DNA from: Chitinophaga oryzae | GTDB lineage: Bacteria; Bacteroidota; Bacteroidia; Chitinophagales; Chitinophagaceae | Assembly (NCBI RefSeq): GCF_012516375.2 | Contig: NZ_CP051204.2 | Span: forward strand, 5,394,001-5,458,000 | Direction of reading: 5' to 3' | DNA length: 64,000 nucleotides | In this document: positions 12,901-36,862 of the stretch, one piece after another | Position numbering within the stretch: the stretch's first letter is position 1 | Layout of the letters: each line of letters begins with the position of its first letter | The notes under the pieces: model-generated | Told to the model about the DNA's origin: nothing | Databases searched by the model: none | The model's input: only the letters and a program-made list of their open reading frames with translations | Program-made: the position numbers and the translations under genes

Positions 12901-15900
12901 TGGCGACACCGGTAGCATTAGATGGTCCCGTGTTGGTCACCAGTAACTGATAAGTGATCTGCGTGCCGGCACTCGCCTTATCCGGCCCGGTTTTAACGAT
13001 CTGCAAAACAGGGTCGCTGGTGATCGTTGTAGTGACTGTATCACTTGATACTGTTGGTTTACCCGGAACTGTTATCAGCGAGAAGTTACGCAGCGCAGCT
13101 CCGGTATACGCCGGATCCACTTGTCCTTTAACAGTGATGGTTATACTATTTCCGGCGCCGGCGGGTATATTCCCGGTAATGTTAACATTGCCAGCACCAT
13201 TAACGGTATTTACGGTTGTACCTGTTCCCGCAGTAACAGTGCTCCACGTTGGATTCAGCACACCGGCAGGAATAGCATCCGTAATTGTTGCGCCAATGGC
13301 ATCCGATGGCCCATTGTTGGTGACGGTAATGGTATAAGTGATATTCTGCCCTGCGCTAAGCGTAAGCGGACCGCTCTTGGTGATCTGCACATCAGGATCG
13401 TTGGTAACGCTGGTAGTGACCTGAGTGGTAACCGGCGGTTTACCCGGAAGCGTTGCAGCAGCTTTATTAACAATACTACCGCTAAACGCAGGGTCCACTA
13501 CTCCTGTAACGGTAATGGTGATTTTATTGGCAGCGCCCGCCGGGATATTACCGGTAATATTCACATGCCCGCTACCGGACTGTGCACTGGATGTAGTACC
13601 GTTACCGCTGGTGGCAACCGTCCATACGGCTCCTGAAATACCCGATGGTATGGAGTCTGTAATCACCACTCCCAGGGCATCAGAGGGCCCGTTATTACCC
13701 ACAACAATCGTGTAGGTGATGTTATTACCTCCACTGACAGATAGTGGTCCGCTTTTACTGATTGTGACATCCGGCGTGTTAGTGACTACAGTGGTAACAG
13801 GCTGGCTGGGTACGGCAGGGCCACCCGGTTGTTCAGCAGTAGCTGTATTGGTGATGCTACCCGCAAAGGCCGGATCTATTTTACCACTCACCGTAATGGT
13901 GATACTATTTCCTGCGCCGCCGGCTACGTTACCGGTAACTGACAAGGTACCGTTGGTGATCGTTGCGCTGGCAATGCTGGCATTTCCGGACGCAGAGGAA
14001 GCGCTGACAACAGGATTCAGAATATGGCTATCCAGCACATCTGTTATTTGTACGCCTGTTGCATCGCTCGGACCTGCATTGGTCAGTTCCAATGTATAAG
14101 TGATGTTCTGTCCCGCACTGAGTGTGGCCGGGCCACTCTTTGCCAGTTGCAGTGAAGTCTTCCTGCCAACAACGGTAGTTACCGTATTGGACGGTTGCGA
14201 AGGTTTACCGGCAGGTGTCACGGTAGCAGTGTTGGTTAATGTGCCTGTAATGGCAGGATCCACTTTGCCTCTTACAACGATGGTGATCTTGTTTCCGGCG
14301 CCGGCAGGAATATTGGCTGTGACGCTCACATTACCTGACGTACCGGCGCTGCCGGCTGTTACGGCAGCTGCACCCGTTGCTGTGGCCGTCCACCGGGCTC
14401 CCTGTATCTGAGCCGGAATATTATCTGTTATTACTGCACCGACTGCATCAGAAGCGCCATTATTTATCACTTCTACCGTATACGTAATACTATCTCCGGC
14501 ATCAAGTGTTGCAGGACCATTCTTGGTGATGACCAATGCCGGATCATTGGTAATACTGGTAGTTACCTGGCTGGTTACAGGCGTACCACCGGCTGGTGTA
14601 GCACTTGCGGTGTTGGTAATAGTGCCGGCAGGTGTAGCGGCTGGTATTCTTCCCCTGATAACAATAGTAACTCCATTACCGCTGCCAGCAGGTAAGCTGG
14701 TCGTAATATTGATATTACCGGTGCCATTCAACGGGCTTCCGCCCGTAATGCTGGCAGAACCGGTAGCGGTGGCTGTCCAGCTCACGCCTGTCAGCGTTGC
14801 CGGAATGTTGTCCTGGATATTGGTATTCGGAGCATCACTTGGGCCGGCATTTGTTACCTGTATGGTATACACGATAGTATCGCCTGCAGATACGGTCCCA
14901 CTGGGCGGGCCGGTTTTCACAATATTAACACCTGTCTGGTTCGTAACAGTTGTACTCACCGTATTAGAGGGTATGGGCGTAGTGCTTCCGGGGGGCGTAA
15001 CACTTGCAGTATTTAAAATGGTGCCGGTAGCGGAAGATTTAATAGTGCCATTAACGGTAATAGTAATAGTATTTCCACTACCTGCAGGAAGATTACCTGT
15101 AAGGTTAATATCGCCACTTCCGCTGGCAGCGCTTACTGTGGCAGTTCCCTGTACGCTGGCTGACCAGGTAACGCCGGTGATCTGTGCAGAAATGGTGTCT
15201 CTCAATATTGCACCGATGGCATCAGACGGTCCGTTATTAACGTAGGTGATAGTATAGCTGATAGCCGTTCCTGCCGGAGCATCCGGCGTACCGGTTTTTG
15301 TTGCCTTAAGATTGAATTGCGGACTATAGGTGTCGGTATCAGTAACAGTATTATTAGCGGTGTTATTATCAGTATAACCGGCGGGCGGCGTAACAGTAGC
15401 TGTATTTGAAAGATTACCGGTAAATCCTGCCGGTACCGGTAATGTAAGCATATAAGTTATGCTTCCACCGGCAGGTATATTTACCAGTTGATTAATAGCG
15501 CCCGTACCATTGGGAGCCGGCACTGTTGCACCATTAAGCGTGCTTGCGCTCCACGTTGCCGTAGTGATGCCGGCAGGTAACGCGTCACTGACAGTTGCCC
15601 CGGTTACATCTGAAGAACCATTATTGCTCACAACGATTGTATACACCGCGTTTGTTCCCGGGGTATACGTAGCCGAACCATCTGTTTTGGAAATAACCAG
15701 ATCTGCAACACGGCTGATCAGGGTGGTATCCTTGGCTGTTGGCGGCGTTGGATCGGTGGCGCCCGGAGGTGGCGTAGCCGTAACGGTATTTATCAATGCG
15801 GTTCCGCTTACGCCCGCACCCACGGTACCGGCAATCGTCAGGGTGGCGCTTTGACCAGTGGCTAACGTCAATCCTGTCCAGGCTCCGGTCCCGCTGGTAT

Positions 15901-18900
15901 AGCTACCGGCAGATGGCGTATAGCCGGTGGCGGTAAATCCGGATGGTAAGTTATCCGTTACCGTTACAACATCGGCCGGTAACAATGTAGCAGGGCCATT
16001 ATTGGTCAGCGTAATCGTATAAGTCAGCGCCTGGCCGGCTACGGCTGGTTTTGGAGTCGCCGTTTTGGCCAGGTCCAGGTCCATAATACGGCTTACCAGT
16101 GTCGTGTCTTTCGCTGTTGGCGGCGTCGGATCTGTAGTACCGGTCGGCGGTACCAGCGTCACGCTGTTGATCAGGCTCGTGCCGGTATAACTATTGCTGA
16201 CCGTGCCGGTAATTGTCAGGGTAGCAGCGCCGCCAACCGTCAGCGACAAGCCGGTCCACGCGCCGGTGGCACTGTTATAGGTACCTGCGGACGGAGCGTA
16301 GTTGTTAGCCGTAAAACCAGATGGCAAATTATCTGTGAGCGTCAACGTATCGCCGGGCAGCATGCTGCTTGGGCCATTATTCGTTAGCGTAATGGTATAA
16401 GTCAGCGCCTGGCCAGCTACGGCTGGTTTTGGGCTGGCTGTCTTCGTCAGCCCGTAATCCATCACACGGTTGATCGTCGTCGTCTGACGGGCCGTATCAT
16501 TTAACAGGTTCGGATCAGGGATCGTTGGCGGGTTGGTGACGATAGCGGTATTATTCAGGCTATCGGCAGCATTGGCCGCTACGGTACCTGCAATAGTGAT
16601 AGTGGCGTTCTGGCCGGGCGTAAGGGTCAGGCCTGTCCAGATGCCATTGCCGCTGGTATAGGTGCCTGCAGAGGCAGTATAACCATTAGCCGTATAACCG
16701 GCAGGCAGGTTATCTGTCACAGTGATGCTATCCGATGCATTTATAGCAGACGGGCCGTTATTGGTAACAGTAAGCGTATAAGTCAGTGACTGACCGGCAA
16801 CAACCGGATTTGGATTAGCTGTTTTAGTGATCGACAAATCATAGGCCGATTGTATGATCAGGCTATAGTCTTCCACTTCCCCATCCATTGCAGCACCAAA
16901 AGTACTTGTTGCCGTCAGCGGATCGGTGGTCAAACGGAAACGCGCATAGGTAATCCCTCCTGAAATGCCTGCTCCTGTGATTAAGGTATTAACATTAGTC
17001 CAGGTAAGCGTCGCAGTGGTCCCGTTATTGGCGACTGTAGCACCGGTTGCTTCTTCCGGATCAAAAGTACCGTTACGGTTAAAGTCGATCCAGCCTTCCA
17101 GATTAGCGTCCGTACCGGTAGTATTGGTAACAGGCAAAGTAAGTGTATAAGTGGTGGTCGCGGCTGTAAGCACAGGTAATGGTGCGGTCAGGCCATCGTC
17201 ATTCGGATCACCGTTGGGTACATTCGCGTCAGCGCCGGCGGCCACCGCAAGCGCTTCTGGTTTGCCTGCAAGGGTAGCCCCTATTTTCAATCCGGGATTA
17301 ACAAGATGCACTGGTCCATCAGATGCTGATAAAGTACCGTAACTATCCGGCGCATCTCCCAAATCAGCATTCGCTACGGCTACTACGCCATTAAATTCCG
17401 AGGTATTGTTTCCGGCATCGGTGGCTGTTGCCGTCAACAAACTACCCTGTGCCACCCCACTAAGGGCCGGCAATGGAATAGTAAACTGAAACCGGTTAGC
17501 GGTATGGGTTCCCGTTATACCGGTCCCATCGTCCATATACGTGCCGGTAGCGGCGTCCTGGTCTGTAATACCTGCTACCGTTCCTCCTTCCTTAAATGTG
17601 GCCAGGTACCTGCGGCCCTCACCAAATCCCAGGAGGTTGGTAAATGCAGCTGGCAGCGGATTAGGGCTTAAGGAAGGCACAGGAGCAAAGCTGGCATCCC
17701 TGTCGGCCAGAAACAGCTCAATAGTGGCCCCCGGGACGGAATAACCTTTTATGACCAGGTTATTGCCTATAATTGCCGCGCCGGTAACAACCGGGAAATT
17801 GAGTAATGCATTAGGACCGGAAGTCGAGCTTCCATTAGGGGTAACAATATCCGGCGCACTGCCTGCAGGCCGCAAATCAATTCCCAGACCTTCATTGGCA
17901 TAAGTACTGTTCTCTGTAATCTTATTGCCCAAAGCGGCAGCACTGCCTCCTATTGCGATACCGGAGGCTCCTGCAGCGGTAACAATATTCCTGGTAATAA
18001 CACTGTTCGTGGTATTATTGAACTGAATATTATCTCTTTCCGCTGCAATCGTACCTGCTGCTCCATTTCCGGAAAAAGTATTGTTGGTTACTGTAGTACC
18101 GCTTCCTATAGCCACTTTCAGCCCTTCATTCAGATTGTTTTGCACACTGTTTCCGGTAATACCGAGGCCCTGAAGGTCCGTTGATACCGTTCCGCTGGTC
18201 ATTTCAATACCGATGCCGGAAGGTTGCACCGAAGTCGGCGCTCCGTTTCCGTTATTCAGTATTTCATTACCTGAAATAGTCAGGCCATTGATCGCTGCAC
18301 TTTGCCGGACGCCTGCAAAGTCGGCACGAATAATATAGTTATTGGTGACACCGGCATTTCCGCTAATAGAAATATTGGAGCCCGGATTGCTTCCGGCGGC
18401 TTCTGTATTGGTTGAAACAGCTGCGCCTCCGATAATATTCTCCGTGATCAGGTTATTATTACCGGTACTAAGAATATTGGCTCCTGCACTGGTATTGTTA
18501 CCAAACCGGCTGATAGCGATATTTCGGACAATCTCATTATTGCCGCTCAAATTCAACCCGCTTGCAGCGGTACCAGCGGCGCCATTCCAACGTATTTCCA
18601 CCTCTGGCCGCTGTACTCCGGGCAACGATAGCTGGTCAACTCCCACTTTAGTCCCCGGGTTACCAGCCACCCCTGATTGTGTGTTGCCAATATTGGCTGT
18701 TTGGGTACGGCCGTCAATACTGGTGTTAGCATCTGTAACGGCAGGTAATAAAGTGGTAAGATTAATAATGGCAGTAGCGCCACCTCCGGCAGCGGTTAAC
18801 TGATCAGGTTTGTTAATCCCGGGGTGCGCGTTACCGTCCGGAATCATGAAAATACTGGTTTCCACACCGGGCGCAGGCGCAAAGATACTGTTAGCCGCCT

Positions 18901-25365: not shown

Positions 25366-25482
25366 AAATGTAATCTTGCGCAAACAACAAAACGTAAGTC
25401 TTTGCTGTTATATCGCTTATGCTACAGACGATGATAAAGAATCAAAACAATTCTTATAACAATCAATATAGATAAGTTGTGT

Positions 25483-25890
25483 ATGGCTTTAGAATTCACT
25501 GATACAAACTTCTTTCGTGAAGTGATATTCTCTGACAAACTTTGTGTTGTTGACTTCTGGTCAGAATGGTGCGGTTCCTGCGCCGCAATGCGCCCAGTCA
25601 TTGAAGCGCTGGCTGATGAGTATGCCGGTAAAGTAAATGTGGGTAAAATAAATGTGGACCGGAACCCCTATCGTGCCTTAAAATACAATATCACCAGCCT
25701 CCCTGTGATCGCGTTCTTCAGAGATGGCAAGCTTGTTTACAAACATGTTGGCATCATTCCCAAAGATAAACTTGACAAGGAAATCCAGGAATACCTCAAA
25801 TCACCAGATAAAATCCAGGCATGCCTCGAACCACTGCATGAAGCAAGGGAATGGCCCGGTCCACCACTGCTTCATCCCTTACCAGGCTGA
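25483..25890 (+). CDS. thioredoxin-family protein with WCGSC active site
   Basis: A 135-residue cytoplasmic protein with the thioredoxin fold: active site W-C-G-S-C (Cys30 and Cys33), cis-proline in SLPVIAFF (Pro74), and G-x-I near 90. Standard thioredoxin has WCGPC; serine in place of the proline is expected to raise the redox potential relative to thioredoxin, as shown for P34S in E. coli thioredoxin. About 25 residues at the C-terminus extend past the usual thioredoxin end. The open frame begins at a TTG (25477); I chose the ATG at 25483. Single gene, ending shortly before a minus-strand tRNA. Confidence 0.88.
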   Translation: MALEFTDTNFFREVIFSDKLCVVDFWSEWCGSCAAMRPVIEALADEYAGKVNVGKINVDRNPYRALKYNITSLPVIAFFRDGKLVYKHVGIIPKDKLDKEIQEYLKSPDKIQACLEPLHEAREWPGPPLLHPLPG

Positions 25891-26168: not shown

Positions 26169-27578
26169 CTATAAATCTTTCAACGCCTGCACTGCGGCAT
26201 GATACCCGCACATGCCATGTACGCCGCCGCCCGGCGGTGTGGAAGCGGAACAGAGATAGATACCTTTGGCGCTGGTACGGTAAGGCGATGTACTTAGCAC
26301 CGGCCGCGTGAACAGCTGGCCGATATCGATAGCGCCCCCGTTGATATCTCCCCCGATGTAGTTGGCGTTGTATTGCTGCATGTCAGCGGCATTCATGACA
26401 TGCCTGCCGATGACACGCTTTTTAAATCCCGGCGCAAAGCGCTCTACCTGGTTTTCGATGATGGCAGTCATGTCTGTGGTATTGCCATTAGGAACATGAC
26501 AGTATCCCCAGGCCGTATGATGTCCCTGCGGCGCGCGCGTCTGATCGAACAGGCTTTGCTGGGCGAAAAGCACAAAGGGTTTTTGTGAAATTTCGTTTTG
26601 CCAGTTGGCCCGCTCCGCTTGTGCAATTTCCGCGAAAGTATTCCCCAGGTGGACAGTGCCGGCTTGCCGGCATTCAGGATTGGTAAATGGTACCGGCCCG
26701 TCGAGCGCCCAGTCGATTTTGAAAACGCCGGGGCCATAACGGTAACGTCCTAACGCTTTTGTATAGCCGGTGCTGAAACGGTGCCCTGCCAGGGCGATCA
26801 GTTGCCTGGGGGATACATCCAGCATCAGCAGCCTTGCCGGCGGCAGCTGGTCAACGTTTTCTACTTTGATACCGGTTTCGATCTTTCCGCCGAGCGACAG
26901 AAAGTACGCCGCCATAGCGTCTGCTATGCCCTGTGAACCGCCTTTTACCAGCGGCCATCCAGCCACATGCCCGGCGGCGCTTAATATAATACCGATAGCG
27001 GCGCCGGAGAGATAATGAAACGGCAACATGGAATGCGCTGCCATGCCGGCCCACAAGCCTTTGGCAGCGGTTGTGCGAAAACGTTTGGCCACTGCCGCTG
27101 CAGACCGCAGGGCAGTCAGCCCGAAACGCGCCATCAGCCAGGGATGCCGCGGGAAATGAAAAGGCGCCAGGATATCCCCGCTCAATTCATTCCAATGCTC
27201 CACCACCGGTCCCACCAGGTCTGCGTAAGCAGCGGCATCAGGCCCCAGGGCAGCGGCAGTAGCGGCTATGCTGCCCTGCAGCACAGCGGCGCTGCCATCA
27301 TCAAACGGATGCGCGGCCGCCACGGCCGGGTATATCAGCTCAAGGCCGTAGTCCTGTAATGAAAGCCCCCTGAAGAACGGTGACATGATCAGCATGGGGT
27401 GTATGGCGGAACATACATCATGACGGAAACCAGGCAACGTCAGCGCTTTGGTGCGCATACCACCGCCGATGGTGTCGCCGGCCTCCAGCACCAATACCTG
27501 TAACCCCTGCTGTTGCAGGGTAATAGCGGCCGCCAGTCCGTTAGGCCCCGCTCCCACGACGATTGCATCGTAACTCAT
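26169..27578 (-). CDS. CrtI/phytoene-dehydrogenase-like FAD oxidoreductase
   Basis: A 469-residue protein with an N-terminal dinucleotide-binding motif (VVGAGPNGLAAAITL, residues 7-21; Glu at the end of the second strand in LVLEAGD) and the family segment IGGGMRT. The C-terminal FAD segment is GIYLCSASTPPGGGVHGMCGY. It resembles the PYROXD2/CrtI-like amine-oxidase superfamily; no carotenoid genes (crtB, crtE) lie nearby, so a carotenoid role is not supported. It overlaps the end of the SoxC-like gene by four bases (start 27578, stop 27575) and is the last gene of the SusCD-DoxX-Sox operon. It may oxidise an imported organic compound (inference). The tRNA lies 77 bases downstream. Confidence 0.85.
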   Translation of the reverse strand: MSYDAIVVGAGPNGLAAAITLQQQGLQVLVLEAGDTIGGGMRTKALTLPGFRHDVCSAIHPMLIMSPFFRGLSLQDYGLELIYPAVAAAHPFDDGSAAVLQGSIAATAAALGPDAAAYADLVGPVVEHWNELSGDILAPFHFPRHPWLMARFGLTALRSAAAVAKRFRTTAAKGLWAGMAAHSMLPFHYLSGAAIGIILSAAGHVAGWPLVKGGSQGIADAMAAYFLSLGGKIETGIKVENVDQLPPARLLMLDVSPRQLIALAGHRFSTGYTKALGRYRYGPGVFKIDWALDGPVPFTNPECRQAGTVHLGNTFAEIAQAERANWQNEISQKPFVLFAQQSLFDQTRAPQGHHTAWGYCHVPNGNTTDMTAIIENQVERFAPGFKKRVIGRHVMNAADMQQYNANYIGGDINGGAIDIGQLFTRPVLSTSPYRTSAKGIYLCSASTPPGGGVHGMCGYHAAVQALKDL

Positions 27579-28786
27579 CTGAATTTCTCCGGTTTAAATA
27601 AAACGGTACCATCTCTTTGTATGATCCATGCGGTGACAGGATTCAGGTGATACCCTCCCATATCCGTGCCACGGGCAGCTGTCAGCTGTTGAAGCGTGGG
27701 TTGTATATACCCGGTATCGTCCACCGCCCTGCTCATGATCTCGGTATGCTGGCCGTCCCAGCGCCAGAGATAACGAAAATAAGTATGCGCTTTGTCCAGC
27801 ACCGGCTCCTGTAACGTTGCTGTATGCCAGTGCCGTCCGGCGTCTGTACTCAACTCCACCCGGCTGATTTTCCCCCGACCGCTCCAGGCAATACCCCGGA
27901 TCTCTATCCAACCCCGCATGACCTGCTGCGGGTAACTGGGATAGGTAATAATAGAACGGGCGTCCATATCGAAACTGAACTGCCGGATCTTCCCGCCCCT
28001 GATCGTCTCCGTGTATTTGGACGTCTCCTCACGCGTCATAAAAGGCTGATCGGAAAGTTCAATACGCCTGATCCATTTTACGTTCGTATTGCCCTCCCAG
28101 CCCGGCAGGAACAGCCGTGCAGGATAACCCTGCTGCGGACGGATCGCCTCCCCGTTTTGCGCGTAAGCGATCATGGCATCCTGCCAGCCTTTGCTGACGG
28201 GGATACTGCGCGTCATCACGGCCGCGTCGGAGCCTTCCGCCAGAAACCACGTGGCTTTAGGGCTCACTCCTACCTCGCGGAACAAGGTGCTGAGCATCAC
28301 GCCGGTCCACTCGCTCTGGCTCGTCAACCCGCATATCTCCTGCGGCGTCATGGTTTCTTTTCCTGTCCTGAAGTTACCGGAACATTCGATAAAAGCGATA
28401 CGTGACAACGCCGGAAACCGCTTCAGGTCCCTCAACGTAAAGACTGTGGGCCGTTCCACCATACCGTGGATAAGCAATTCATACTTATCAGGATCAATAT
28501 TGGGTACGCCATTGTGACTTCTCTCAAAGTGCAGGTCCGATGGTGTAATGATACCGTAGAAGTCCTGCAGCGGCGACCGGGCAGAGATGTCCGACGCCTT
28601 TTTCTCCGGCCGCTCAAAAGGTGAACGGCTACCCAGTTTTCCCACCGGCACGCCGGGCGTTTTTGTCGGGTCTGCCCAAACCTCAGGCGGCGCCTGCTGT
28701 GCCGATGCCCCGGGGATCAACGCTCCCAACGCCGACATCGCCGCTGCCTGCAATAACGTTCGTCGCGCAATCTTCTCTTTCTTCAT
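27575..28786 (-). CDS. soxC: SoxC-like molybdopterin sulfite dehydrogenase
   Basis: A 403-residue periplasmic enzyme. The N-terminus has a twin-arginine signal (ARRTLLQAAAMSALGALIPGASAQ), expected because the molybdopterin cofactor is inserted before export. The oxidoreductase molybdopterin domain (about 75-260) contains the invariant cysteine in FIECSGNFRTG (Cys135), the WTGVMLSTLFREVG segment and GWEGNTNVKWIRRIEL; the C-terminal Mo-co dimerisation domain (about 285-375) has VELSTDAGRHW and FRYLWRWDG. This is the SoxC/sulfite-oxidase family, which oxidises sulfite or a protein-bound sulfane sulfur and passes electrons to cytochrome c. The gene just upstream encodes a cytochrome c of SoxD type. 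No heme-binding b5 domain is present. soxAB, soxXYZ are not in the window. Confidence 0.9.
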   Translation of the reverse strand: MKKEKIARRTLLQAAAMSALGALIPGASAQQAPPEVWADPTKTPGVPVGKLGSRSPFERPEKKASDISARSPLQDFYGIITPSDLHFERSHNGVPNIDPDKYELLIHGMVERPTVFTLRDLKRFPALSRIAFIECSGNFRTGKETMTPQEICGLTSQSEWTGVMLSTLFREVGVSPKATWFLAEGSDAAVMTRSIPVSKGWQDAMIAYAQNGEAIRPQQGYPARLFLPGWEGNTNVKWIRRIELSDQPFMTREETSKYTETIRGGKIRQFSFDMDARSIITYPSYPQQVMRGWIEIRGIAWSGRGKISRVELSTDAGRHWHTATLQEPVLDKAHTYFRYLWRWDGQHTEIMSRAVDDTGYIQPTLQQLTAARGTDMGGYHLNPVTAWIIQRDGTVLFKPEKFR

Positions 28787-28797
28787 ACATTGACTGT

Positions 28798-29334
28798 TTA
28801 TCTCACTTCATGACCACCACGGCGGTCATCGTTTACATACAGCTTGCGGGCCGGCATATCAATCGCAGGCAGCGTGTGTGCATTAATGATAGTATTGCTG
28901 TCGATGACCTGGTTACTGCTCAGCAGGAACGCCGTCAGATGATATACCTCCTCATTGCTCAGCGTGCCGGGCGCATTGAATGGCATCGCCCGGCGGATAT
29001 AGTCGAACAACGTAGTGGCGTAAGGCCAGTAGTTACCAATGGCTTTTACGTGGGAAGTATCTCCCATCGGCGCTACCAGCCGGTAGGCGGCCACCTCCGT
29101 ACCTGTAGGGCCGTGACAGGGAGCGCATTTGGCGATGAAAATAGCACGGCCCGCAGCTGTACGCCCCTCGCCGGGCGGCAACCCCTTCCCGTCAGGAGCG
29201 ATCGAGATATTCACCGAATCTGTTTCCTGCTGTGTGGCCGGCCTTCCGAAGCCGAACCGCTCCGGGCCTGCCGGCGTGGTATGGCAGGCCACCACACTCA
29301 TCCCTGCCATCACCACTGTTAATATTCTTATCAT
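28798..29334 (-). CDS. SoxD-like cytochrome c lipoprotein
   Basis: A 178-residue class I c-type cytochrome. It begins with a short signal and lipobox (VVAC, Cys17), so it is probably a membrane-anchored lipoprotein. The heme site is C-A-P-C-H (Cys70, Cys73, His74); the likely axial methionine is Met117 in RRAMPFNAPGTLSNEEVYHLTAFLL, a typical SoxD/cytochrome c ending. It is 11 bases upstream of the SoxC-like gene and 5 bases downstream of a DoxX-like gene. SoxC/SoxD together form sulfite dehydrogenase in classical Sox systems; here this cytochrome would accept its electrons and pass them to the respiratory chain, perhaps through the DoxX-like proteins (inference). Confidence 0.88.
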   Translation of the reverse strand: MIRILTVVMAGMSVVACHTTPAGPERFGFGRPATQQETDSVNISIAPDGKGLPPGEGRTAAGRAIFIAKCAPCHGPTGTEVAAYRLVAPMGDTSHVKAIGNYWPYATTLFDYIRRAMPFNAPGTLSNEEVYHLTAFLLSSNQVIDSNTIINAHTLPAIDMPARKLYVNDDRRGGHEVR

Positions 29335-29339
29335 CTGTT

Positions 29340-30989
29340 TTAATATTTCCCCGCCTGCAAGGATGAAGGCGTAAGCGCATAGTGCCTGTCTACCCGGTCC
29401 AGCACCACGTATAACCTGTTTTTGTTTTCATCGGTACCGGTAAGGATAACATGATTGCCGTCCGTTGTCTGGTACTGCACCACAAAACGCTGACGCTTTT
29501 CGTTTTTGGGAGCCGCCGCATAATCGCGCTTTCTGCGGGCAGACAAAGCAATGGACGCTATCTTCCCATACTCGTCCCCGATATTTTTTCTTGCGGCAGC
29601 CGGTATCCAGTCTTCCTGCTGCCTCTCGTCTTTATCGTTTCGTGTAACCGCCGGCGTTTTATCGTTACCGAGGTTCACATCCGTTCCACCGTCACCGCCT
29701 ACGCCGGCAGTCCTGTTGCGCCGATCAGGGATGGCTTTGTATTTATCTTCGAGATACAACGTGTGTTCCACCTCATCGGCATAATAGTGAAAAGCCCGCT
29801 GGCCGCCGGCGAGGCCGGTGATTTCAAAAGTGCGGTTTACATCCCGTTGCGGATCACCGCCACCATTGGATAAATCCAGCGGATGCGGCTTATTCACCCG
29901 GAAGGTAAAAGTAGACCAGTTCTCGAAAGTAGCTTCCTGCCATCGCACCGTGTCCAGCGGATTGTATGGGATCACCTGGTCGTTGATACGAAACTCCGTC
30001 ACGTTGTAGTTCCCCCGAAGCACCTTTACTCCGGCCACCGCCGGCTGCTTGTAAGGATCATACAGGAAATTGATCAGCTGCAGATAAAACAACACTCCCA
30101 GGAAAAGAAAAATGGTAAAAGACTTCAGACCGATGCGCAATGCTTTGCCCGCTCTATTAAACACCGGGTAATAATTCACCGGCACCACCGGCTTCTCCTG
30201 CACCAGCAACCGGTAGATGTTGGGAACGTCGTTCACCAGCAGAAAACCTGCCAGCAACACAAAATAGCTGCTGTACACATGTACGCCGCCGTCATACGCA
30301 AAATTGACGTAGACAATATCTCCCAGCGCCGCCGCCAGCAGTATAGCCCCCAGCGTCGTAGTCCTGCGGAAGAACAGCAATGTGCCCGCGGCCACTTCCA
30401 CCACTCCCGCAAAAATCTGGTACCATGGCACAATACCGATCGACAACCAATAGATCTTCTGCGCCGTCAGATCACCAAAGTTCGTATTCAGTATCCCCAG
30501 GGAAGGATAAGGCATCTGCACGGGCAACAGCTTGGTGAACCCGAAACCGATGATACCAATGCCAGCCCGGTAACGCACCACTACCCTCAACCAGTAATAC
30601 AGACCGAAATATTCCGCCCGCTCCGTTTTACGCAGCTTCACGATCCAGGTCCACAGCAATCCGCCACCAGTAGCAATCAACACGGTCGTGAGCCAGTTGG
30701 CATACCCCAGCAGCGACGTGCCAAAAATTTTATTGCCGAAGAAATTGATCCCGGAACCAAACCGGGCAATATCATACAGGTCACGGTAGTTGAGGTGACG
30801 CCAGTCCAGCGCTATCAGCTGGGCGTACCACTCCGGCGTGTTCGGTATCGAAATAGCGATAAAAAAGATAAACGCTATGCGGAACAATACCTTCTCATAG
30901 CCTTTCCAGGCAGTCTTTACAGGCGATGGCGCTGCTTTCGTCACCGGCGCGGCCTCCTGTAAAACAGTTGCTGCTGTTACCATGTTCAA
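29340..30989 (-). CDS. DoxX-like membrane protein with periplasmic C-terminal domain (paralogue A)
   Basis: A 549-residue protein. The first 330 residues hold about seven to eight hydrophobic helices (VLFRIAFIFFIAISIP; ANWLTTVLIATGGGLLWTWIV; YQIFAGVVEVAAGTLLFF; GAILLAAALGDIVYV; SFTIFLFLGVLFYLQLI). The segment YYWLRVVVRYRAGIGIIGFGFTKLLP and GVVEVAAGTLLFFRRTTTLGA match the DoxX/DoxD pattern seen in the membrane subunit of thiosulfate:quinone oxidoreductase. The last 220 residues are soluble and beta-rich, with a glycine/aspartate-rich insertion near residue 435 (GVGGDGGTD). It is a paralogue of the gene directly upstream, which lacks this insertion. It starts 13 bases after that gene and ends 5 bases before the cytochrome gene. 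Quinone-linked electron transfer is inference. Confidence 0.75.
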   Translation of the reverse strand: MNMVTAATVLQEAAPVTKAAPSPVKTAWKGYEKVLFRIAFIFFIAISIPNTPEWYAQLIALDWRHLNYRDLYDIARFGSGINFFGNKIFGTSLLGYANWLTTVLIATGGGLLWTWIVKLRKTERAEYFGLYYWLRVVVRYRAGIGIIGFGFTKLLPVQMPYPSLGILNTNFGDLTAQKIYWLSIGIVPWYQIFAGVVEVAAGTLLFFRRTTTLGAILLAAALGDIVYVNFAYDGGVHVYSSYFVLLAGFLLVNDVPNIYRLLVQEKPVVPVNYYPVFNRAGKALRIGLKSFTIFLFLGVLFYLQLINFLYDPYKQPAVAGVKVLRGNYNVTEFRINDQVIPYNPLDTVRWQEATFENWSTFTFRVNKPHPLDLSNGGGDPQRDVNRTFEITGLAGGQRAFHYYADEVEHTLYLEDKYKAIPDRRNRTAGVGGDGGTDVNLGNDKTPAVTRNDKDERQQEDWIPAAARKNIGDEYGKIASIALSARRKRDYAAAPKNEKRQRFVVQYQTTDGNHVILTGTDENKNRLYVVLDRVDRHYALTPSSLQAGKY

Positions 30990-31002
30990 TAATGTTAGAT
31001 GT

Positions 31003-32355
31003 TTATAATTTGAGTTTCCTTAACCGGCCTTCTCCTTTGGCGGCTTCTTCCAGCAGATATTTTTTGGGCAGCTTGTCCAGCACCGCCAATACCGAATCTT
31101 TGGCGGCGGTAATGCCCGCCAGTACCACCCTGCCTGCCGATGGCCGGCTGTACTGCAACACAAACACATCATGCTGGTAATGCGGGTTCCGGTTGCTGAG
31201 CAGCAACCGCTGATGAACACTGTCTATGACATAGCTGTAATAGTGCCTGCCATTGGTGCCTTCAGACTCATATCTCTTGCCGGTATCTGCTTTCGGCACA
31301 AGGTGCGCATTATTACTGTCCAGCAGCACCGGCTCATTGGAACGGATGCTCAGTGTGTTCCATTCCTCGAACACGACGTTCTGCCAGCGTTTGGGATGTG
31401 AAGGAGAATAAGTGACGGTATCACCGTTAAGCACATACGTACTAACATTATATAATCCGGCGGCAGCGGCCAATCCCTTTGCAGTCGGATATTGATAAGG
31501 GTCCTTCCGCGCGCCTGTACCGGTTTTGACACCATAAATCAACACAAAAAAAAGGACAAAGGCCGACTTCAGTGCCACCCGGCCTACTTTCCAGCCACCG
31601 GTAAAAGAAGGACGAAAATTGTTCGGCGCCGTAGGCAACTGCAGCACCAACAGCCGCACTACCCTCAACAGGTCAAAACTGAAAATGAACAGCGCCAGCG
31701 TAATCAGGTAAAGGCTGTACACCGTATCACCGCCTTCATATGCGAGATTGGACATGAAGATGTTTCCGCAAAATATCAGGAAGATAAAAGCGGCGATGGA
31801 GGCCGTTTTCCTGTGCAGCAACAACAGTCCTGTCACGATCTCCACCAACCCGAGGAATAACTCGTACGAGGGTACGATTCCCAGACTGAGGGAAAACAGC
31901 TTCCACCGGTTAAAGGCGCCGTATGGCGTATTCAGGCTGCTGAGCGAAGGATACGGGGCCTGTAAAGGAAAGAATTTTATAAAACCGTAAGCCAGAATGG
32001 CCAGCGCCAGCCGGTAACGCACCAATACCCGCAACCAGTAATAAAGTTTATCGTAATTGTCCGTCCTCCCTGCATCGCGATAAGTCCATATCAGCCCGGC
32101 CACCACGGCTATCCCGAATATAATTCCCCAGTCGGTAAATGCTGCCGGTCCGGCGGAAAAGCGGGTGGTATAGCGGGCCAGGTTAAAAATATCCTGGTAG
32201 GCCAGCTCCGGCCAGTCCACCTTACCCAGATAACTGTAGAATTTCCAGTCCAGCGGCAGTACCTGCAGCAGCAGGTAGACGAACAGTATCCGGAAGGCTG
32301 TTTTCTCCGGTGCGTTCCAGCGGCTTTCCGCACCTGTTTGTGAAGTAATATCCAT
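31003..32355 (-). CDS. DoxX-like membrane protein with periplasmic C-terminal domain (paralogue B)
   Basis: A 450-residue paralogue of the gene downstream. Matching segments are DNYDKLYYWLRVLVRYRLALAILAYGFIKFFPLQAPYPSL (against YFGLYYWLRVVVRYRAG...PYPSL), GLVEIVTGLLLLHRKTASIAA, and the C-terminal domain (FEEWNTLSIRSNEPVLLD; HYYSYVIDSVHQRLLLSNR). About seven membrane helices are predicted, then about 160 periplasmic residues. DoxX-family proteins include DoxD of thiosulfate:quinone oxidoreductase; the C-terminal extension is not part of that subunit as I know it. It lies 21 bases after the SusD gene in the seven-gene operon. Confidence 0.75.
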   Translation of the reverse strand: MDITSQTGAESRWNAPEKTAFRILFVYLLLQVLPLDWKFYSYLGKVDWPELAYQDIFNLARYTTRFSAGPAAFTDWGIIFGIAVVAGLIWTYRDAGRTDNYDKLYYWLRVLVRYRLALAILAYGFIKFFPLQAPYPSLSSLNTPYGAFNRWKLFSLSLGIVPSYELFLGLVEIVTGLLLLHRKTASIAAFIFLIFCGNIFMSNLAYEGGDTVYSLYLITLALFIFSFDLLRVVRLLVLQLPTAPNNFRPSFTGGWKVGRVALKSAFVLFFVLIYGVKTGTGARKDPYQYPTAKGLAAAAGLYNVSTYVLNGDTVTYSPSHPKRWQNVVFEEWNTLSIRSNEPVLLDSNNAHLVPKADTGKRYESEGTNGRHYYSYVIDSVHQRLLLSNRNPHYQHDVFVLQYSRPSAGRVVLAGITAAKDSVLAVLDKLPKKYLLEEAAKGEGRLRKLKL

Positions 32356-32376
32356 AACAGTAATTATTTTGGATGA

Positions 32377-33729
32377 TCAATAACCGGGGTTCTGTGCAAG
32401 CCTGCCTTTGGACAACAGGATCTCCTGTGCCGGAATGGGGAATAGGTACTTTTGGGCATCTGTCAGTCCCAGCACGGCGGCGGCGCGGTTGGTCCTCACC
32501 AGGTCAAACCAGCGATGCGGTTCAAAGGCAAATTCAACGCGTCTTTCGTTCTCAATTGCCAGCAGCGCCGCTTCTTTAGAAGTGCCGGTGAAGTCTGTCA
32601 GACCGGCCCTGCCCCGTACGGCATTGAGCGGTGTCAGCGCCTCGGTGGTTTTGCCCTGTTGCGCCAATGCCTCGGCATAGATCAGGTACAGCTCCGCGAT
32701 GCGGATAATATAGGCCGGATCAGTGGCGGGACTGCGGTAGTAAAGATTGCCATACCAAAGACCTGCAGATGTTCTGCCTACCAGCGCCTTGCGGTTACCC
32801 CCAATGGCGGCATCATTCACCAGGGTAATAAACGCATCGGCCGGCGCCCATTGCCGGGTGCCGCCATTAGCCGGAGGCTGCCAGCTGTTGCGGTGGCTGT
32901 TGGTATAGGTAGCACTATAGGACAGTTCAAAAACACTTTCCCTGGTAGCCACGGTACTGGCCGGAGAAAAGAAAGCGGCATAAGGTTGTACCAGCTGGTA
33001 ATTCTTTTGATCAGCCAGTACTTTGGCGGCATAGGCGGCCGCTTCGCTCCATTGGCCACGATATAAATAATACCGCGCTTTCAGCGCCCACACTGTTTCC
33101 TGGTTGATCCTGACAGGATTGGCGGATACCGGCGCTTTGAGCAATGGCTCGGCTGCATTCAGGTCGGCTAACACCTGTGCATATACGGCCTCCTGGTTGC
33201 GCTGCTCCACGTTCTCCTTGTCGGCCATTGTCAGGGTAGGCGTCAACGTGATCTGCACGTTTCCCCATGTCCGCGCCAGATCGAAATAGCTCAGCGCACG
33301 GATGGCCAGCGCTTCGCCGACGATCTGGTTTTTATCATCGGAGGAGAAAGCGGCGTCGTTTACACCCGGCACTTTGGTAATGACGTGATTGGCGCTGTTG
33401 ATCGTGGCATAGATGGCCGACCACACACTGGCCAGGTTGCCGTTGTCTGCCTGGATATTATGTGTGATAAACTGTTGTATGACCGATTGGGAGCCGGTCC
33501 ACTGCACATTATCCCCCGGCAGGTAGCCGAATGTCTGGAACAGGCTGCCGTAGTAACCATCGGCAGACAGCTTACGGTAAGTGCCGCGCAGCGCGGTCTG
33601 CGCAGAGGTCTTGTCTGTGATGGTCTGGTCGTCGGAGACGTAGTCTTTGGGTTTGACATCGAGGAACTTCCCGCAGGAGATGGCCAGCACTGTCCAGAAG
33701 AGTAATAAATATCGGAGTAGTTGTTTCAT
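32377..33729 (-). CDS. SusD/RagB-family outer-membrane lipoprotein
   Basis: A 450-residue protein with a lipoprotein signal (Cys19 in LAISCGKFLDVKPKDY; the K-F-L-D-V start is typical of SusD). TPR-like helical pairs follow, with family segments LVGEALAIRALSYFDLARTWG, ETVWALKARYYLYRGQWSEAAAYAAKVL, and the C-terminal YLIYAEALAQQGKTTEALTPLNAVRGRAGL and RRVEFAFEPHRWFDLVRT. SusD proteins sit as lids on their SusC channel and bind the imported ligand. The SusC gene is 10 bases upstream. In contrast with usual SusCD loci no glycoside hydrolase is nearby; the downstream genes are DoxX-like and Sox-like, so the ligand may not be a glycan. Confidence 0.94.
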   Translation of the reverse strand: MKQLLRYLLLFWTVLAISCGKFLDVKPKDYVSDDQTITDKTSAQTALRGTYRKLSADGYYGSLFQTFGYLPGDNVQWTGSQSVIQQFITHNIQADNGNLASVWSAIYATINSANHVITKVPGVNDAAFSSDDKNQIVGEALAIRALSYFDLARTWGNVQITLTPTLTMADKENVEQRNQEAVYAQVLADLNAAEPLLKAPVSANPVRINQETVWALKARYYLYRGQWSEAAAYAAKVLADQKNYQLVQPYAAFFSPASTVATRESVFELSYSATYTNSHRNSWQPPANGGTRQWAPADAFITLVNDAAIGGNRKALVGRTSAGLWYGNLYYRSPATDPAYIIRIAELYLIYAEALAQQGKTTEALTPLNAVRGRAGLTDFTGTSKEAALLAIENERRVEFAFEPHRWFDLVRTNRAAAVLGLTDAQKYLFPIPAQEILLSKGRLAQNPGY

Positions 33730-33739
33730 CAGTCAGGAT

Positions 33740-36700
33740 TTAAAGGGTGAGATGGATGCCTGCCTGTACGCTGCGAGGCTGCGGAGGCGTACCGAGGTCC
33801 AGCCCCTGGACGGTTTGAATGGAGGTCACATTGGCCTCGGGGTCCGGACCGGTGTAGTTGGTCAGCAACCACAGGTTACTACCGGTAACATACACACGCA
33901 GTTGGTTCATGTGCAGCCGCGCGGTGACGTTCTTGGGCACCGTATAACTCAGGGTGACTGATTTCAGCCGCAGGAAAGAACCGTCTTCCAGGAAACGGCT
34001 GTTCTGATCAATCGTATAGTTCAGGCCATAGGCGGTAAGCCGCGGCACATCGGTCACGTCGCCGGGCTTCTGCCAGCGGTTCAGCTGGTCGGCCACCAAT
34101 ACCCTGTTGGCATCGCGGGTGCCGCCGCCTTCACCGAAGAACTTGTTCAGGTTATAAACATCGTTGCCGTACTGGAAGGAGAAAAGCACATTCAGGTCGA
34201 AGCCTTTCCAGGAGACAGTGTTGCTGAAGCCGCCGAAGAAGTCCGGCATGGCATTACCCATCACCCGGCGGGCAGATACGGGAAGCTTGCCTTTCTCCGC
34301 GCCTTCAAAAATCACGCTGCCGGTTTGAGGGTCCACGCCCAGCTGCTTGTAAAGCCAGAAAGCATACATGGGAGATCCTTCCTGCATGATGATCCAGTCG
34401 CGGTTGTACTGGTAAACAGGTGTCGGCAGCTTTTCTATACGGTTTTTATTGCCGGAGATGGTGAGGCTGCTTGTCCACCGCAGTGCCTTGTTTGTAATAT
34501 TGACGGTATTAATGCCGACCTCGTAACCTTTGTTGCTGATTTCGCCGGCGTTGCTGTTGAGCGAACTGAAGCCGGTCATACCGGGTACGGGCAAACGCAG
34601 TAACACGTTGCTGGTGTATTTATAATAGACATCGGCGGTAAGACTGATCCGGCCTTCGAACAGGCCCAGGTCGATACCGGCGTTTGTTTGACTGGTACGT
34701 TCCCATTGCAGGTTGGTATTGGACAGTTGTTGCGGCGCCGTTCCCGGCTGATCGCCGGAGCTGCCGTCGGGGTAACCGAAGCCACCGCTCCACAGCCCCT
34801 GTGAGGCGAAGTTGTCTATACCTGCCTGGTTGCCGGTCACCCCGTAACTGGCCCTGATTTTAAGGTCGCTGATACGGGAATTATTTTTCAGGAAGGCTTC
34901 TTCTTTCACGCGCCATGAGGCGCCTACCGCCGGAAAATAGCCCCAGCGGGTATCTTTACCGAACTTGGAAGAACCGTCTGCCCTGATGCTGGCTTCGAGA
35001 TAATATTTACCCGCATAGTTGTAATCGATGCGGGAGAAAAAAGAAGCCAGGTTCACTTTTGTCCACGTTTGGTTGGAAGTACGTGTAGCCGCGGCCGATA
35101 TATCCTTGTAGGCATTGCTGGCGAAGCCGGTGCCCTGCGCCGAGGTAAGGGAAATGGTGTTGCTCTGCAGGGTATTGCCTGCCAGTACACCAAGGAAGTG
35201 GCCGGTACCCAGCCGTTTTTTATAGGATAATGTCTGTTCGTTGATCCAGGCGGTGTTCTGCGTAATGGCGGAAGTGGCCAATCCATTGGTAGGCGCGGCT
35301 CCCAGCTGTGTAAAATTGTTCCAGTATTCCGATTCGTTGTAGTTATTATAGTCAAGGCTGAACGTGCTGCGGAATTTGAGGTCCGGCAGAATAGCGGCAT
35401 CGAGGTAAATATTACCGATGTAGCGGAGACTGGTAGTGTTCACATCATAGTTGTTGATGAGCACCTGTACGTTGTCGAACCCTGCCCATCTGGCCGGTGT
35501 ACCGTCTGCATTGAATTCCGGCAGATAGGTGGGGGTATGCAATGCCGCCTGCAGCAGGCCTCCCTGCGGGCCATCGCCGGCACGGCCCTGGTTGCGGTAG
35601 CTGCGCGAGAAACTGTTGCTGGTACCCACGCTGATGCGGTCGTTCACACGCTGGTCCAGGTTGAGTTTGAAGTTCACCCGGTCGAATGACATGGGCCGCA
35701 GGATGGATTCCTGTTTGGAAAAGCCGCCGCCGATATAATATTTCGTTTCCTTACTGCCGCCCGACAGCGAGAGGTTATAGTTCTGTAGTCCTGCATGGCG
35801 GAAGATCTCCCCCAGCCTGTCGTACGTCTGCTGTTCGGAGGGCAGCCCGCGGGGCGCCGGGGTGGCTTCCGGGCGGTCTGTTTTGGCACGGAACGGCAAC
35901 AGCTCATATTTTTTTCTGCCGGCCTCATCTCCGAGAGCTACAGCGTCCGCATAGGAGTTGCGATAGAATTCGTTGATCAGCTCCGCATGTTGCGGGCCGG
36001 TGGTCAGGTCCCATAGCCGGGGCGCCCAGGCTACGCCGCCGGACACATCTACATTCAGACGGGATTTGGTGTTGTAGTTCCCTCTTTTGGTAGTGACGAT
36101 CACCACGCCGTTGGCGCCACGGGAACCGTAGATGGCGGTAGCGCTGGCATCTTTCAGCACCTCTATATTTTCGATGTCTGCCGGGTTGAGGTCCGCCAGC
36201 ACCGAGGCGCTGCGCCCGCCGGTATTGACCGTCTGCAGGTTGGTGTTATTGATAAACACGCCGTCTACAATATACAGCGGGTTGTTGTCCGCATTAATAG
36301 AGGTGGTGCCTCTTACGCGGACAAATACGCCATCGCCGGGAACGCCGGTGTTGGAATTGATCTGCACACCGGCAGCGCGGCCCTGTAGCTGCGCATCGAA
36401 GCTGGCCACCGGTACGTTGGCCACGTCGGCGCCTTTAACAGAGGAGATGGCGCTGGTAAGGTCGCGGCGTTTCTGCGTGCCATAGCCTACCACCACCACA
36501 TCGTTCAGTTGCTGGGAAAGCTCCGCCATGGCGATGTTGCCGGCGTTGGACTTGTCTACGTATATCTCCTTCAACTGGTACCCGAGCGCGGAGATCTGGT
36601 AAATCACCGGTACTTTCTGGCCGGTGCGAAAGAAAAAATCTCCCTGCCGGTTGGTCTGTACTTCGTGCGTGGTGCCTTTAATGTGTACGATGGCGCCCTC

Positions 36701-36862
36701 CAGTGGCTGTGATGTTTTTGCGTCGATGACTTTTCCGGAGAGTGAGATGTTGTGTTGCACAACAACCCCCGATTTAGGTAAGAGCGTGTCCCCTCCTTTC
36801 TGCTGCGCCGGGGAAAGAAAGGGCAACAGCAGGCCTAAACTGCTTGCAATAGCAATTTTCAT
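33740..36862 (-). CDS. SusC/RagA-family TonB-linked outer-membrane transporter
   Basis: A 1040-residue protein. Signal peptide to about residue 20; carboxypeptidase-like domain (about 38-112: SGKVIDAKTSQPLEGAIV); TonB-box-like VVVVGYGTQKRRDLT; plug domain with the SusC signature PLYIVDGVFI and IEVLKDASATAIYGSRGANGVV; then the barrel ending GIHLTL. It transports a ligand captured by the SusD lid, using TonB energy. It heads the operon and probably sets the expression of all seven genes. Upstream I see no clear TAnnTTTG box on the minus strand within 300 bases; regulation is not visible. Confidence 0.95.
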   Translation of the reverse strand: MKIAIASSLGLLLPFLSPAQQKGGDTLLPKSGVVVQHNISLSGKVIDAKTSQPLEGAIVHIKGTTHEVQTNRQGDFFFRTGQKVPVIYQISALGYQLKEIYVDKSNAGNIAMAELSQQLNDVVVVGYGTQKRRDLTSAISSVKGADVANVPVASFDAQLQGRAAGVQINSNTGVPGDGVFVRVRGTTSINADNNPLYIVDGVFINNTNLQTVNTGGRSASVLADLNPADIENIEVLKDASATAIYGSRGANGVVIVTTKRGNYNTKSRLNVDVSGGVAWAPRLWDLTTGPQHAELINEFYRNSYADAVALGDEAGRKKYELLPFRAKTDRPEATPAPRGLPSEQQTYDRLGEIFRHAGLQNYNLSLSGGSKETKYYIGGGFSKQESILRPMSFDRVNFKLNLDQRVNDRISVGTSNSFSRSYRNQGRAGDGPQGGLLQAALHTPTYLPEFNADGTPARWAGFDNVQVLINNYDVNTTSLRYIGNIYLDAAILPDLKFRSTFSLDYNNYNESEYWNNFTQLGAAPTNGLATSAITQNTAWINEQTLSYKKRLGTGHFLGVLAGNTLQSNTISLTSAQGTGFASNAYKDISAAATRTSNQTWTKVNLASFFSRIDYNYAGKYYLEASIRADGSSKFGKDTRWGYFPAVGASWRVKEEAFLKNNSRISDLKIRASYGVTGNQAGIDNFASQGLWSGGFGYPDGSSGDQPGTAPQQLSNTNLQWERTSQTNAGIDLGLFEGRISLTADVYYKYTSNVLLRLPVPGMTGFSSLNSNAGEISNKGYEVGINTVNITNKALRWTSSLTISGNKNRIEKLPTPVYQYNRDWIIMQEGSPMYAFWLYKQLGVDPQTGSVIFEGAEKGKLPVSARRVMGNAMPDFFGGFSNTVSWKGFDLNVLFSFQYGNDVYNLNKFFGEGGGTRDANRVLVADQLNRWQKPGDVTDVPRLTAYGLNYTIDQNSRFLEDGSFLRLKSVTLSYTVPKNVTARLHMNQLRVYVTGSNLWLLTNYTGPDPEANVTSIQTVQGLDLGTPPQPRSVQAGIHLTL

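What the first reader, a model, noticed from the sequence alone, without database searches (positions are those of the whole stretch)
26169..36862. Seven-gene operon joining SusC/SusD to DoxX-like, SoxD- and SoxC-like proteins
Seen: SusC, SusD, two DoxX-like membrane proteins, cytochrome c, SoxC-like enzyme and CrtI-like oxidoreductase, with spacers of 10, 21, 13, 5 and 11 bases and a final four-base overlap, all on one strand. Known: SusCD imports large ligands; SoxCD oxidises sulfite or sulfane sulfur; DoxD-type proteins are in thiosulfate:quinone oxidoreductase. Inference: an uptake system for a sulfur-containing ligand tied to sulfur oxidation and quinone-linked respiration, an arrangement not usual for a glycan locus (no glycoside hydrolase or sulfatase present). 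The ligand is unknown.
Basis: partly seen in the sequence, partly recalled or inferred. Interest (0 to 1): 0.78.

Follow-up and report, generated by a model that had tools for sequence, protein, structure and literature searches.

The report
SusCD operon carrying sulfite-oxidising enzyme
A seven-gene operon in a Chitinophaga-like bacterium joins an outer-membrane nutrient importer to a sulfur-oxidising enzyme pair; similar sets recur across Bacteroidota, sometimes with a different sulfur enzyme, which points to an undescribed way for these bacteria to take up and oxidise a sulfur-bearing compound.

Summary
The seven ORFs, order, strand and spacers are as described. SusC and SoxC pass curated cut-offs, SusD its Pfam models. 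The cytochrome's best solved relative is SoxD, but it has one heme. "DoxX-like" rests on weak fold evidence and public labels; kinship to TQO DoxDA was tested and not found. The last gene is a CrtI-superfamily flavoprotein, not CrtI or CrtO.

The set is conserved though uncommon. Of 40 Bacteroidota SoxC loci, 39 carry DoxB and 36 an orthologous SusCD. In 294 genomes of the window's family all 11 full-length SoxC genes lie in it. In 5 of 27 related Dox-pair loci an MBL-rhodanese (persulfide-dioxygenase-like) protein and a CGC protein replace SoxC and cytochrome; 6 have only a YeiH-type exporter; 6 have none of these.

SoxY was found in 0 of 19 cassette genomes, and 40 of 40 Bacteroidota SoxC keep an Arg present in SorA but not in Paracoccus SoxC: most likely a periplasmic sulfite dehydrogenase. 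The ligand and the Dox proteins' role remain unknown.

The parts
33740..36862 (-). SusC: TonB-linked outer-membrane transporter with CarboxypepD_reg-like and Plug domains
   Evidence: TIGR04056 803.5 bits, TIGR04057, PF13715, PF07715
32377..33729 (-). SusD: surface lipoprotein partner (lipobox ..LAISC-G read by eye from the sequence)
   Evidence: PF07980 8e-30, PF14322 2.5e-19
31003..32355 (-). Membrane protein 'DoxA' (my label; not the TQO subunit DoxA): paralogue of DoxB
   Evidence: hhalign with the DoxB family 100%, E 1.6e-134; no Pfam match
29340..30989 (-). Membrane protein 'DoxB' (my label): DoxX-like helical part plus C-terminal lipocalin-like beta barrel
   Evidence: AlphaFold2 model m47a743e37a21, pLDDT 82.6; weak fold matches to NACHO/TMEM35A, GGCX and lipocalins; some orthologues labelled 'DoxX family protein' in UniRef
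28798..29334 (-). Single-heme c-type cytochrome (CAPCH), lipobox-like SVVAC; related to SoxD
   Evidence: PF13442/PF00034; 2xts_B SoxD 6.9e-30 over residues 26-171
27575..28786 (-). SoxC-family molybdenum enzyme, probably sulfite dehydrogenase, with twin-arginine signal (RRTLLQ)
   Evidence: TIGR04555 479.2 bits over cut-off 420; R8 R9 invariant in 44 rows; CSGNFR motif
26169..27578 (-). CrtI-superfamily FAD oxidoreductase, no signal peptide seen by eye
   Evidence: PF13450, PF01593; NF045689 115.5 bits against cut-off 1000; orthologue in 65 of 294 genomes, most of them not near Dox genes

Best explanation
The operon is an uptake-and-oxidation locus for a sulfur-bearing compound. SusCD brings the ligand across the outer membrane. 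The paralogous membrane pair DoxA/DoxB (DoxX-like helices; DoxB's model also shows a lipocalin-like barrel) handles the ligand or a sulfur intermediate at the inner membrane. Sulfite released from it is oxidised to sulfate in the periplasm by the Tat-exported molybdenum enzyme (SoxC family, sulfite-dehydrogenase type), and the single-heme, probably membrane-tethered cytochrome passes the electrons to the respiratory chain. In relatives a YeiH-type exporter in the same operon would move sulfite made in the cytoplasm to this enzyme; here two PF03601 genes elsewhere in the genome could serve. Shown: gene content, order, conservation, no SoxY found, sulfite-oxidase-type Arg, a persulfide-dioxygenase-like protein in SoxC's place in related loci. 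Inferred: substrate sulfite, sulfur-bearing ligand, cellular locations, roles of DoxA/DoxB and of the flavoprotein.
For: Operon anatomy. SoxC passes TIGR04555. The cytochrome is SoxD-related, and cytochrome and SoxC genes are neighbours in 40 of 40 Bacteroidota loci (39 as ORFs, L036 by tblastn). Arg at Cys+5 in 40 of 40 Bacteroidota SoxC against 7 of 29 scanned SoxC ORFs of other phyla; in the alignments it matches SorA (CSGNSR) and not Paracoccus SoxC (CAANGGMEW). SoxY in 0 of 19 cassette genomes, while the same search rings in 3 of 8 genomes of other phyla. Cassette: 39/40 DoxB, 37/40 DoxA, 36/40 SusC at 40% identity or more, 24/40 PF03601 exporter. All 11 full-length SoxC in 294 genomes lie beside DoxA/DoxB. 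In 5 of 27 Dox-pair loci an MBL-rhodanese protein with the motifs THPHADF and CxxGYR stands in SoxC's place. YeiH is the gene most induced by thiosulfate in Hyphomicrobium and is proposed to export sulfite to the periplasm (PMC11582611, PMC12423496; passages read).
Against: No enzyme in the operon is known to free sulfite from an organic ligand. The CrtI-like gene is common outside the cassette: 65 of 294 genomes have it, and by my comparison only 19 of the 65 have it within about 10 kb of a DoxB match (plus the G576 remnant). Six of 27 Dox-pair loci have neither SoxC, MBL-rhodanese nor an operonic YeiH-type gene (L140 is a truncated contig and L141 has a distant PF03601 gene on the other strand). 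The window's own operon lacks the exporter. The DoxX label is weak, and no structural match shows a sulfur or quinone function. SoxC's best-scoring family is SoxC, not SorA or SorT.
Confidence: 0.52

Rival explanations
1. Sulfite detoxification added to an ordinary SusCD locus: SusCD imports a peptide or glycan without special sulfur content, and SoxC/cytochrome (or MBL-rhodanese, or YeiH) only clears sulfite or persulfide arising from metabolism.
For: S51 (cyanophycinase-like) peptidase genes in 5 of 40 SoxC loci and two copies in L118 without SoxC suggest a peptide ligand. Six of 27 Dox-pair loci have no sulfur module in the fetched stretch.
Against: Full-length SoxC is found only in this cassette among 294 genomes, and the CGC protein only in the MBL-rhodanese type (5 of 294, all in the cassette); a general detoxification gene would be expected in varied places.
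Confidence: 0.25
2. A canonical SoxCD sulfane dehydrogenase within a (hidden) Sox thiosulfate-oxidising system.
For: TIGR04555 match above cut-off; partner related to SoxD.
Against: SoxY in 0 of 19 cassette genomes, with the model ringing in 3 of 8 others; loop CSGNFR instead of CAANGGMEW; one heme, not two (two hemes in SoxD is recalled).
Confidence: 0.07
3. Quinone-linked thiosulfate oxidation: DoxA/DoxB act as a thiosulfate:quinone oxidoreductase like DoxDA, feeding SoxC.
For: Loosely similar layout (DoxX-like membrane part plus soluble part); weak fold resemblance to GGCX, an enzyme that uses vitamin K hydroquinone (Foldseek E 0.02).
Against: Profile comparison with six DoxDA proteins from the class finds nothing (probability 0.2-0.3%, E 0.24); PF07680 not found in the window's genome while it is found in 7 of 198 genomes, 6 of them over the cut-off.
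Confidence: 0.06
4. The molybdenum enzyme acts on another small oxyanion or S-oxide, and the sulfur context of relatives misleads.
For: Substrate range within PF00174 is wide (recalled); no activity is known to me for this subfamily.
Against: TIGR04555 match; retained R89, H91, C135, Y258 and C+5 Arg, which align with R55, H57, C104, Y236 and R109 of SorA (roles recalled); MBL-rhodanese protein in its place in 5 loci and frequent pairing with a YeiH-type exporter.
Confidence: 0.1

Closest known systems
SoxCD sulfane dehydrogenase (Paracoccus, PDB 2xts)
   Same: SoxC family model passed; partner cytochrome aligns to SoxD; genes adjacent
   Different: No SoxY found in 19 of 19 cassette genomes, loop CSGNFR instead of CAANGGMEW, one heme
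SorAB / SorT sulfite dehydrogenases
   Same: Mo domain plus dimerisation domain, C+5 Arg as in SorA, cytochrome c gene beside it
   Different: Sequence is nearer to SoxC (479.2 bits) than to SorA (128.5 against cut-off 600) or SorT (119.5 against 570)
Orphan SoxCD of Gemmatimonadetes and Chloroflexi (PMC6704655)
   Same: SoxC and cytochrome without other Sox genes; its authors call the role unclear (passages read)
   Different: No SusCD or Dox match in the 40 loci of other phyla that I hold; three Gemmatimonadota loci have a neighbour that I read as YeeE/YedE-like (c34)
SusCD polysaccharide-utilisation loci of Bacteroidota
   Same: SusC and SusD adjacent at the head of one operon, same families
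   Different: No glycoside hydrolase, polysaccharide lyase or sulfatase among the seven genes; membrane and redox proteins instead
Thiosulfate:quinone oxidoreductase DoxDA
   Same: Only the general layout of a helical membrane domain with a soluble domain
   Different: No detectable sequence kinship
CstB-like MBL-rhodanese / persulfide dioxygenases (in relatives' cassettes; PDB 3tp9, 3r2u)
   Same: Lactamase_B and rhodanese domains, THxHADF and CxxGYR motifs; the name CstB is recalled
   Different: Four of five start with an RR motif and the fifth with a hydrophobic stretch, so probably exported; they lie in a SusCD operon with a CGC protein of unknown role; activity untested

Membership tests
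SoxCD sulfane dehydrogenase of the Sox system | SoxC family model above curated cut-off | tested here: met
   TIGR04555 479.2 bits, cut-off 420
SoxCD sulfane dehydrogenase of the Sox system | SoxD partner related by sequence | tested here: met
   2xts_B 6.9e-30 over residues 26-171
SoxCD sulfane dehydrogenase of the Sox system | Two-heme SoxD (recalled) | tested here: not met
   One CxxCH in the window's protein and in 39 of 39 cytochrome ORFs of relatives
SoxCD sulfane dehydrogenase of the Sox system | SoxYZ substrate carrier in the genome | tested here: not met
   PF13501 (SoxY) in 0 of 19 cassette genomes, found in 3 of 8 others in the same search; completeness known only for the window's genome; SoxZ not tested
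SoxCD sulfane dehydrogenase of the Sox system | Active-site loop as in Paracoccus SoxC (CAANGGMEW) | tested here: not met
   C[SA]GN[FY]R in 40 of 40 Bacteroidota loci and CSGNFR in the window
Periplasmic sulfite dehydrogenase (SorA/SorT) | SorA or SorT family model above cut-off | tested here: not met
   128.5 against 600; 119.5 against 570
Periplasmic sulfite dehydrogenase (SorA/SorT) | Sulfite-binding Arg five residues after the Mo-ligand Cys (role recalled) | tested here: met
Periplasmic sulfite dehydrogenase (SorA/SorT) | Sulfite:cytochrome c activity | not testable with these tools
   Needs assay
Thiosulfate:quinone oxidoreductase DoxDA | DoxD/DoxA sequence families | tested here: not met
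   hhalign probability 0.2-0.3%; PF07680 not found in the window's genome
DoxX superfamily | Pfam DoxX-type model above cut-off | tested here: not met
   DoxB best MauE at E 0.048, 14.4 bits against 27; DoxA none
DoxX superfamily | DoxX-like four-helix fold | tested here: inconclusive
SusCD nutrient uptake pair | SusC and SusD models matched and genes adjacent | tested here: met
   TIGR04056, PF07980, PF14322 over cut-offs; 10-base spacer
Polysaccharide utilisation locus | Carbohydrate-active enzymes or sulfatases in the operon | tested here: not met
   None among the seven genes
CrtI/CrtO carotenoid enzymes | Curated cut-offs | tested here: not met
   115.5 against 1000 and 56.1 against 238.1

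The most novel reading that the evidence does not exclude
This is one form of an undescribed class of Bacteroidota loci, 'sulfur-utilisation loci': a constant SusC-SusD-DoxA-DoxB core that captures a large sulfur-bearing ligand (perhaps peptide- or polymer-bound sulfur), combined with exchangeable oxidation cartridges: an orphan SoxCD-type sulfite dehydrogenase, often with a YeiH exporter, or an exported persulfide dioxygenase-rhodanese with a CGC sulfur-carrier protein. It would explain why SoxC and its cytochrome occur without SoxYZ in this phylum.
Probability: 0.4. Interest if true: 0.78.

Novelty: new variant of a known kind. Interest (0 to 1): 0.62.

Why it matters
SusCD systems are known mainly as glycan and peptide importers (recalled). 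A SusCD system tied to sulfur oxidation would add a substrate class and give these Bacteroidota a role in the sulfur cycle. It also gives a testable setting for the open question, stated in PMC6704655 (passages read), of what SoxCD does where the rest of the Sox system is missing. Strains with named genomes carry the cassette (Chitinophaga, Pinibacter, Mucilaginibacter, Spirosoma, Runella, Aquirufa), so the test is practical.

Tried and rejected
Canonical Sox system: rejected, SoxY found in 0 of 19 cassette genomes searched; the first own-genome search had no ringing control, so it was repeated with genomes in which the model rings (one of the 28 handles given, L044, was not held and not searched). 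TQO DoxDA: rejected at sequence level. DoxX by profile against one small DoxX protein: probability 9%, not convincing. CGC protein as a SoxYZ-like carrier: the model is confident (pLDDT 93.3) but shows Ig-like domains with generic matches; SoxYZ is not among the rows shown, which excludes nothing. CrtI-like gene as a constant cassette part: weakened, since it is in 65 of 294 genomes and mostly elsewhere. The CGC protein in a wider class sample: only 1 of 295, a genome already known. SoxC in the same class sample at 1e-60: only the own genome, 1 of 295. A consensus Bacteroidota promoter (recalled pattern) upstream of SusC: none found in the window or in six related loci. Distant single Dox-like proteins (8 loci, L143-L150): no SusCD-Dox arrangement and no sulfur theme that I could read, apart from an MBL-rhodanese gene 6 kb away in L150; L143 and L145 lie near contig ends. 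The script stopped with an error before its last listing, so neighbours of the loci of other phyla were seen only as clusters, not locus by locus. Ten paper searches gave listings in which I recognised no description of this cassette; the one for SoxC, SusC and DoxX together returned 0 papers. Passages of PMC5373536 were read and not used.
Full report
Observation. The seven ORFs, their strand, order, spacers (10, 21, 13, 5, 11) and four-base overlap are as reported. The genome is one contig of 8.36 Mb; the nearest named SoxC relatives are Chitinophaga sp. at 86%. SusC passes TIGR04056 and SusD matches PF07980 and PF14322. SoxC passes TIGR04555 (479.2 against 420) and has both Mo-enzyme domains. 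The cytochrome aligns to SoxD of Paracoccus (2xts_B, 6.9e-30). The two membrane proteins match no Pfam or NCBIfam model at 1e-3; with a loose threshold the longer one touches MauE at 0.048. The last gene is a flavoprotein far below the CrtI and CrtO cut-offs.

Conservation. A scan of species genomes confirmed 119 SoxC relatives and kept the best 80 loci; what follows concerns those 80. I treated 40 as Bacteroidota by title and by the cassette; L007 is titled Williamsia, but its cassette is 54-77% identical to the window's, so I kept it as a probable mislabel. Of the 40: DoxB 39, DoxA 37, SusC and SusD at 40% identity or more 36 each, cytochrome 39 as an ORF plus L036 by tblastn, CrtI-like 30, PF03601 exporter 24, S51 peptidase 5. 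L037 has only cytochrome and SoxC; in L020 and L021 the SusCD is a different one (about 24-32% identical); L019 starts within DoxA. The 40 loci of other phyla have SoxC and a cytochrome but no SusCD or Dox match in that search. The cassette is uncommon: at 1e-60 SoxC is in 1 of 295 genomes of a class-wide sample, the window's own, and in 12 of 294 of its family.

Reverse test. In the 294 family genomes DoxB gives 64 genomes with a match at 1e-20. I fetched every locus with a match at 1e-50 or better other than the window's own, 27 loci with a Dox pair in 26 genomes (L114-L128, L131-L142), and 8 of the weaker single-copy ones. Of the 27, 26 have SusC and SusD in the same run of genes (L123 has not). 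SoxC and cytochrome are in 10; an MBL-rhodanese protein and a CGC protein in 5; a YeiH-type gene without either in 6; none of these in 6 (L118, L123, L126, L139, L140, L141; L140 ends after DoxB, and L141 has a distant PF03601 gene on the other strand). The YeiH-type gene is in 8 of 10 SoxC-type loci and in 0 of 5 MBL-rhodanese-type loci, within the stretches fetched. In the same 294 genomes SoxC has 12 matches: 11 full-length, all in the cassette (own plus 10), and one broken remnant in G576 beside pieces of DoxB and the exporter and an intact CrtI-like gene. The CGC protein has 5, all in the cassette, and no genome of the sample has both. In a DoxB tree of 45 rows the SoxC label needs 4 changes against 15.0 in shuffles and the MBL-rhodanese label 2 against 4.9, so each cartridge largely goes with its own Dox subfamily. 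Some long branches are flagged there, and near relatives inflate such clustering.

What the swap means. The MBL-rhodanese protein has Lactamase_B and rhodanese domains, nearest solved relatives 3tp9 and 3r2u, motifs THPHADF and CxxGYR, and in four of five an N-terminal RR. No NCBIfam model passes its cut-off, so that it is a persulfide dioxygenase, making sulfite from persulfides, is inference from the family. Two unrelated proteins of sulfur oxidation thus occupy the same place in the same kind of SusCD-Dox operon. This is the strongest evidence that the operon's business is sulfur.

Which reaction for SoxC. SoxY (PF13501) was found in 0 of 19 cassette genomes, while the same search rings in 3 of 8 other genomes. 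In all 40 Bacteroidota loci the Mo-ligand Cys is followed by an Arg at +5, against 7 of 29 SoxC ORFs over 330 aa of other phyla. SorA has the same spacing and Paracoccus SoxC has not (alignments). That this Arg binds sulfite in sulfite oxidases is recalled. I put sulfite dehydrogenase at about 75%. The cytochrome has one heme in 39 of 39 ORFs; 14 of 39 match a lipobox-like pattern (one looks spurious) and many others start with a hydrophobic stretch, read by eye, so a membrane tether is probable but not tested.

The YeiH link. In Hyphomicrobium denitrificans yeiH rises 526-fold with thiosulfate, and the authors argue that the protein exports sulfite to the periplasm (PMC11582611, PMC12423496; passages read). 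The cassette's exporter passes PF03601 (153.4 against 24.5) but not TIGR00698 (87 against 232.6). The window's operon lacks it; two PF03601 genes lie elsewhere in the genome.

The CrtI-like gene. It is in 30 of 40 SoxC loci and in 16 of the 27 Dox-pair loci, but also in 65 of 294 genomes. By my comparison, 19 of these 65 have it within about 10 kb of a DoxB match (one of them, G395, a distant single copy), besides the G576 remnant. It is a frequent passenger, not a constant part.

Known or new. NCBI calls several SoxC relatives 'sulfite dehydrogenase', and DoxB relatives are 'hypothetical protein' or, in UniRef, 'DoxX family protein' where named. PMC6704655 notes SoxCD without other Sox enzymes in Gemmatimonadetes and Chloroflexi and calls its role unclear (passages read). 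Ten paper searches listed no description of this cassette that I recognised; the library is open-licence only.

Noticed in passing
window 6983-20467 (-), with 5942-6958 (-): A 4494-aa ORF directly upstream of a PorP/SprF type IX secretion membrane protein gene (PF11751): looks like a giant surface protein with its T9SS partner; the large ORF itself was not scanned.
   Followed up: no
window 25477-25890 (+): Thioredoxin gene (TIGR01068 above cut-off) converging on the operon's end across a tRNA-Lys; whether relatives keep it there was not tested.
   Followed up: no
   Followed up: partly
L131:10369-11136 and homologues: Family of about 255-aa secreted proteins with invariant C177-G178-C179 and Ig-like domains (AlphaFold2 pLDDT 93.3), only very weak Pfam matches and no NCBIfam match; 185 relatives in the protein collection. 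Possible sulfur carrier.
   Followed up: partly
L007 (JADCRZ010000009.1): Contig titled Williamsia sp. (an actinomycete, recalled) carries the Bacteroidota cassette at 54-77% protein identity; probable mislabelled MAG.
   Followed up: no
L022, L028, L032, L034, L039, L118: Cyanophycinase-like S51 peptidase genes inside or beside the cassette; the one scanned (L028) is just under the TIGR02069 cut-off (123.7 against 126.6).
   Followed up: partly
L051, L059, L060: A gene that I read as YeeE/YedE-like (thiosulfate transport family, recalled) close to the SoxC-cytochrome pair in three Gemmatimonadota loci (cluster c34); not scanned against a library.
   Followed up: no
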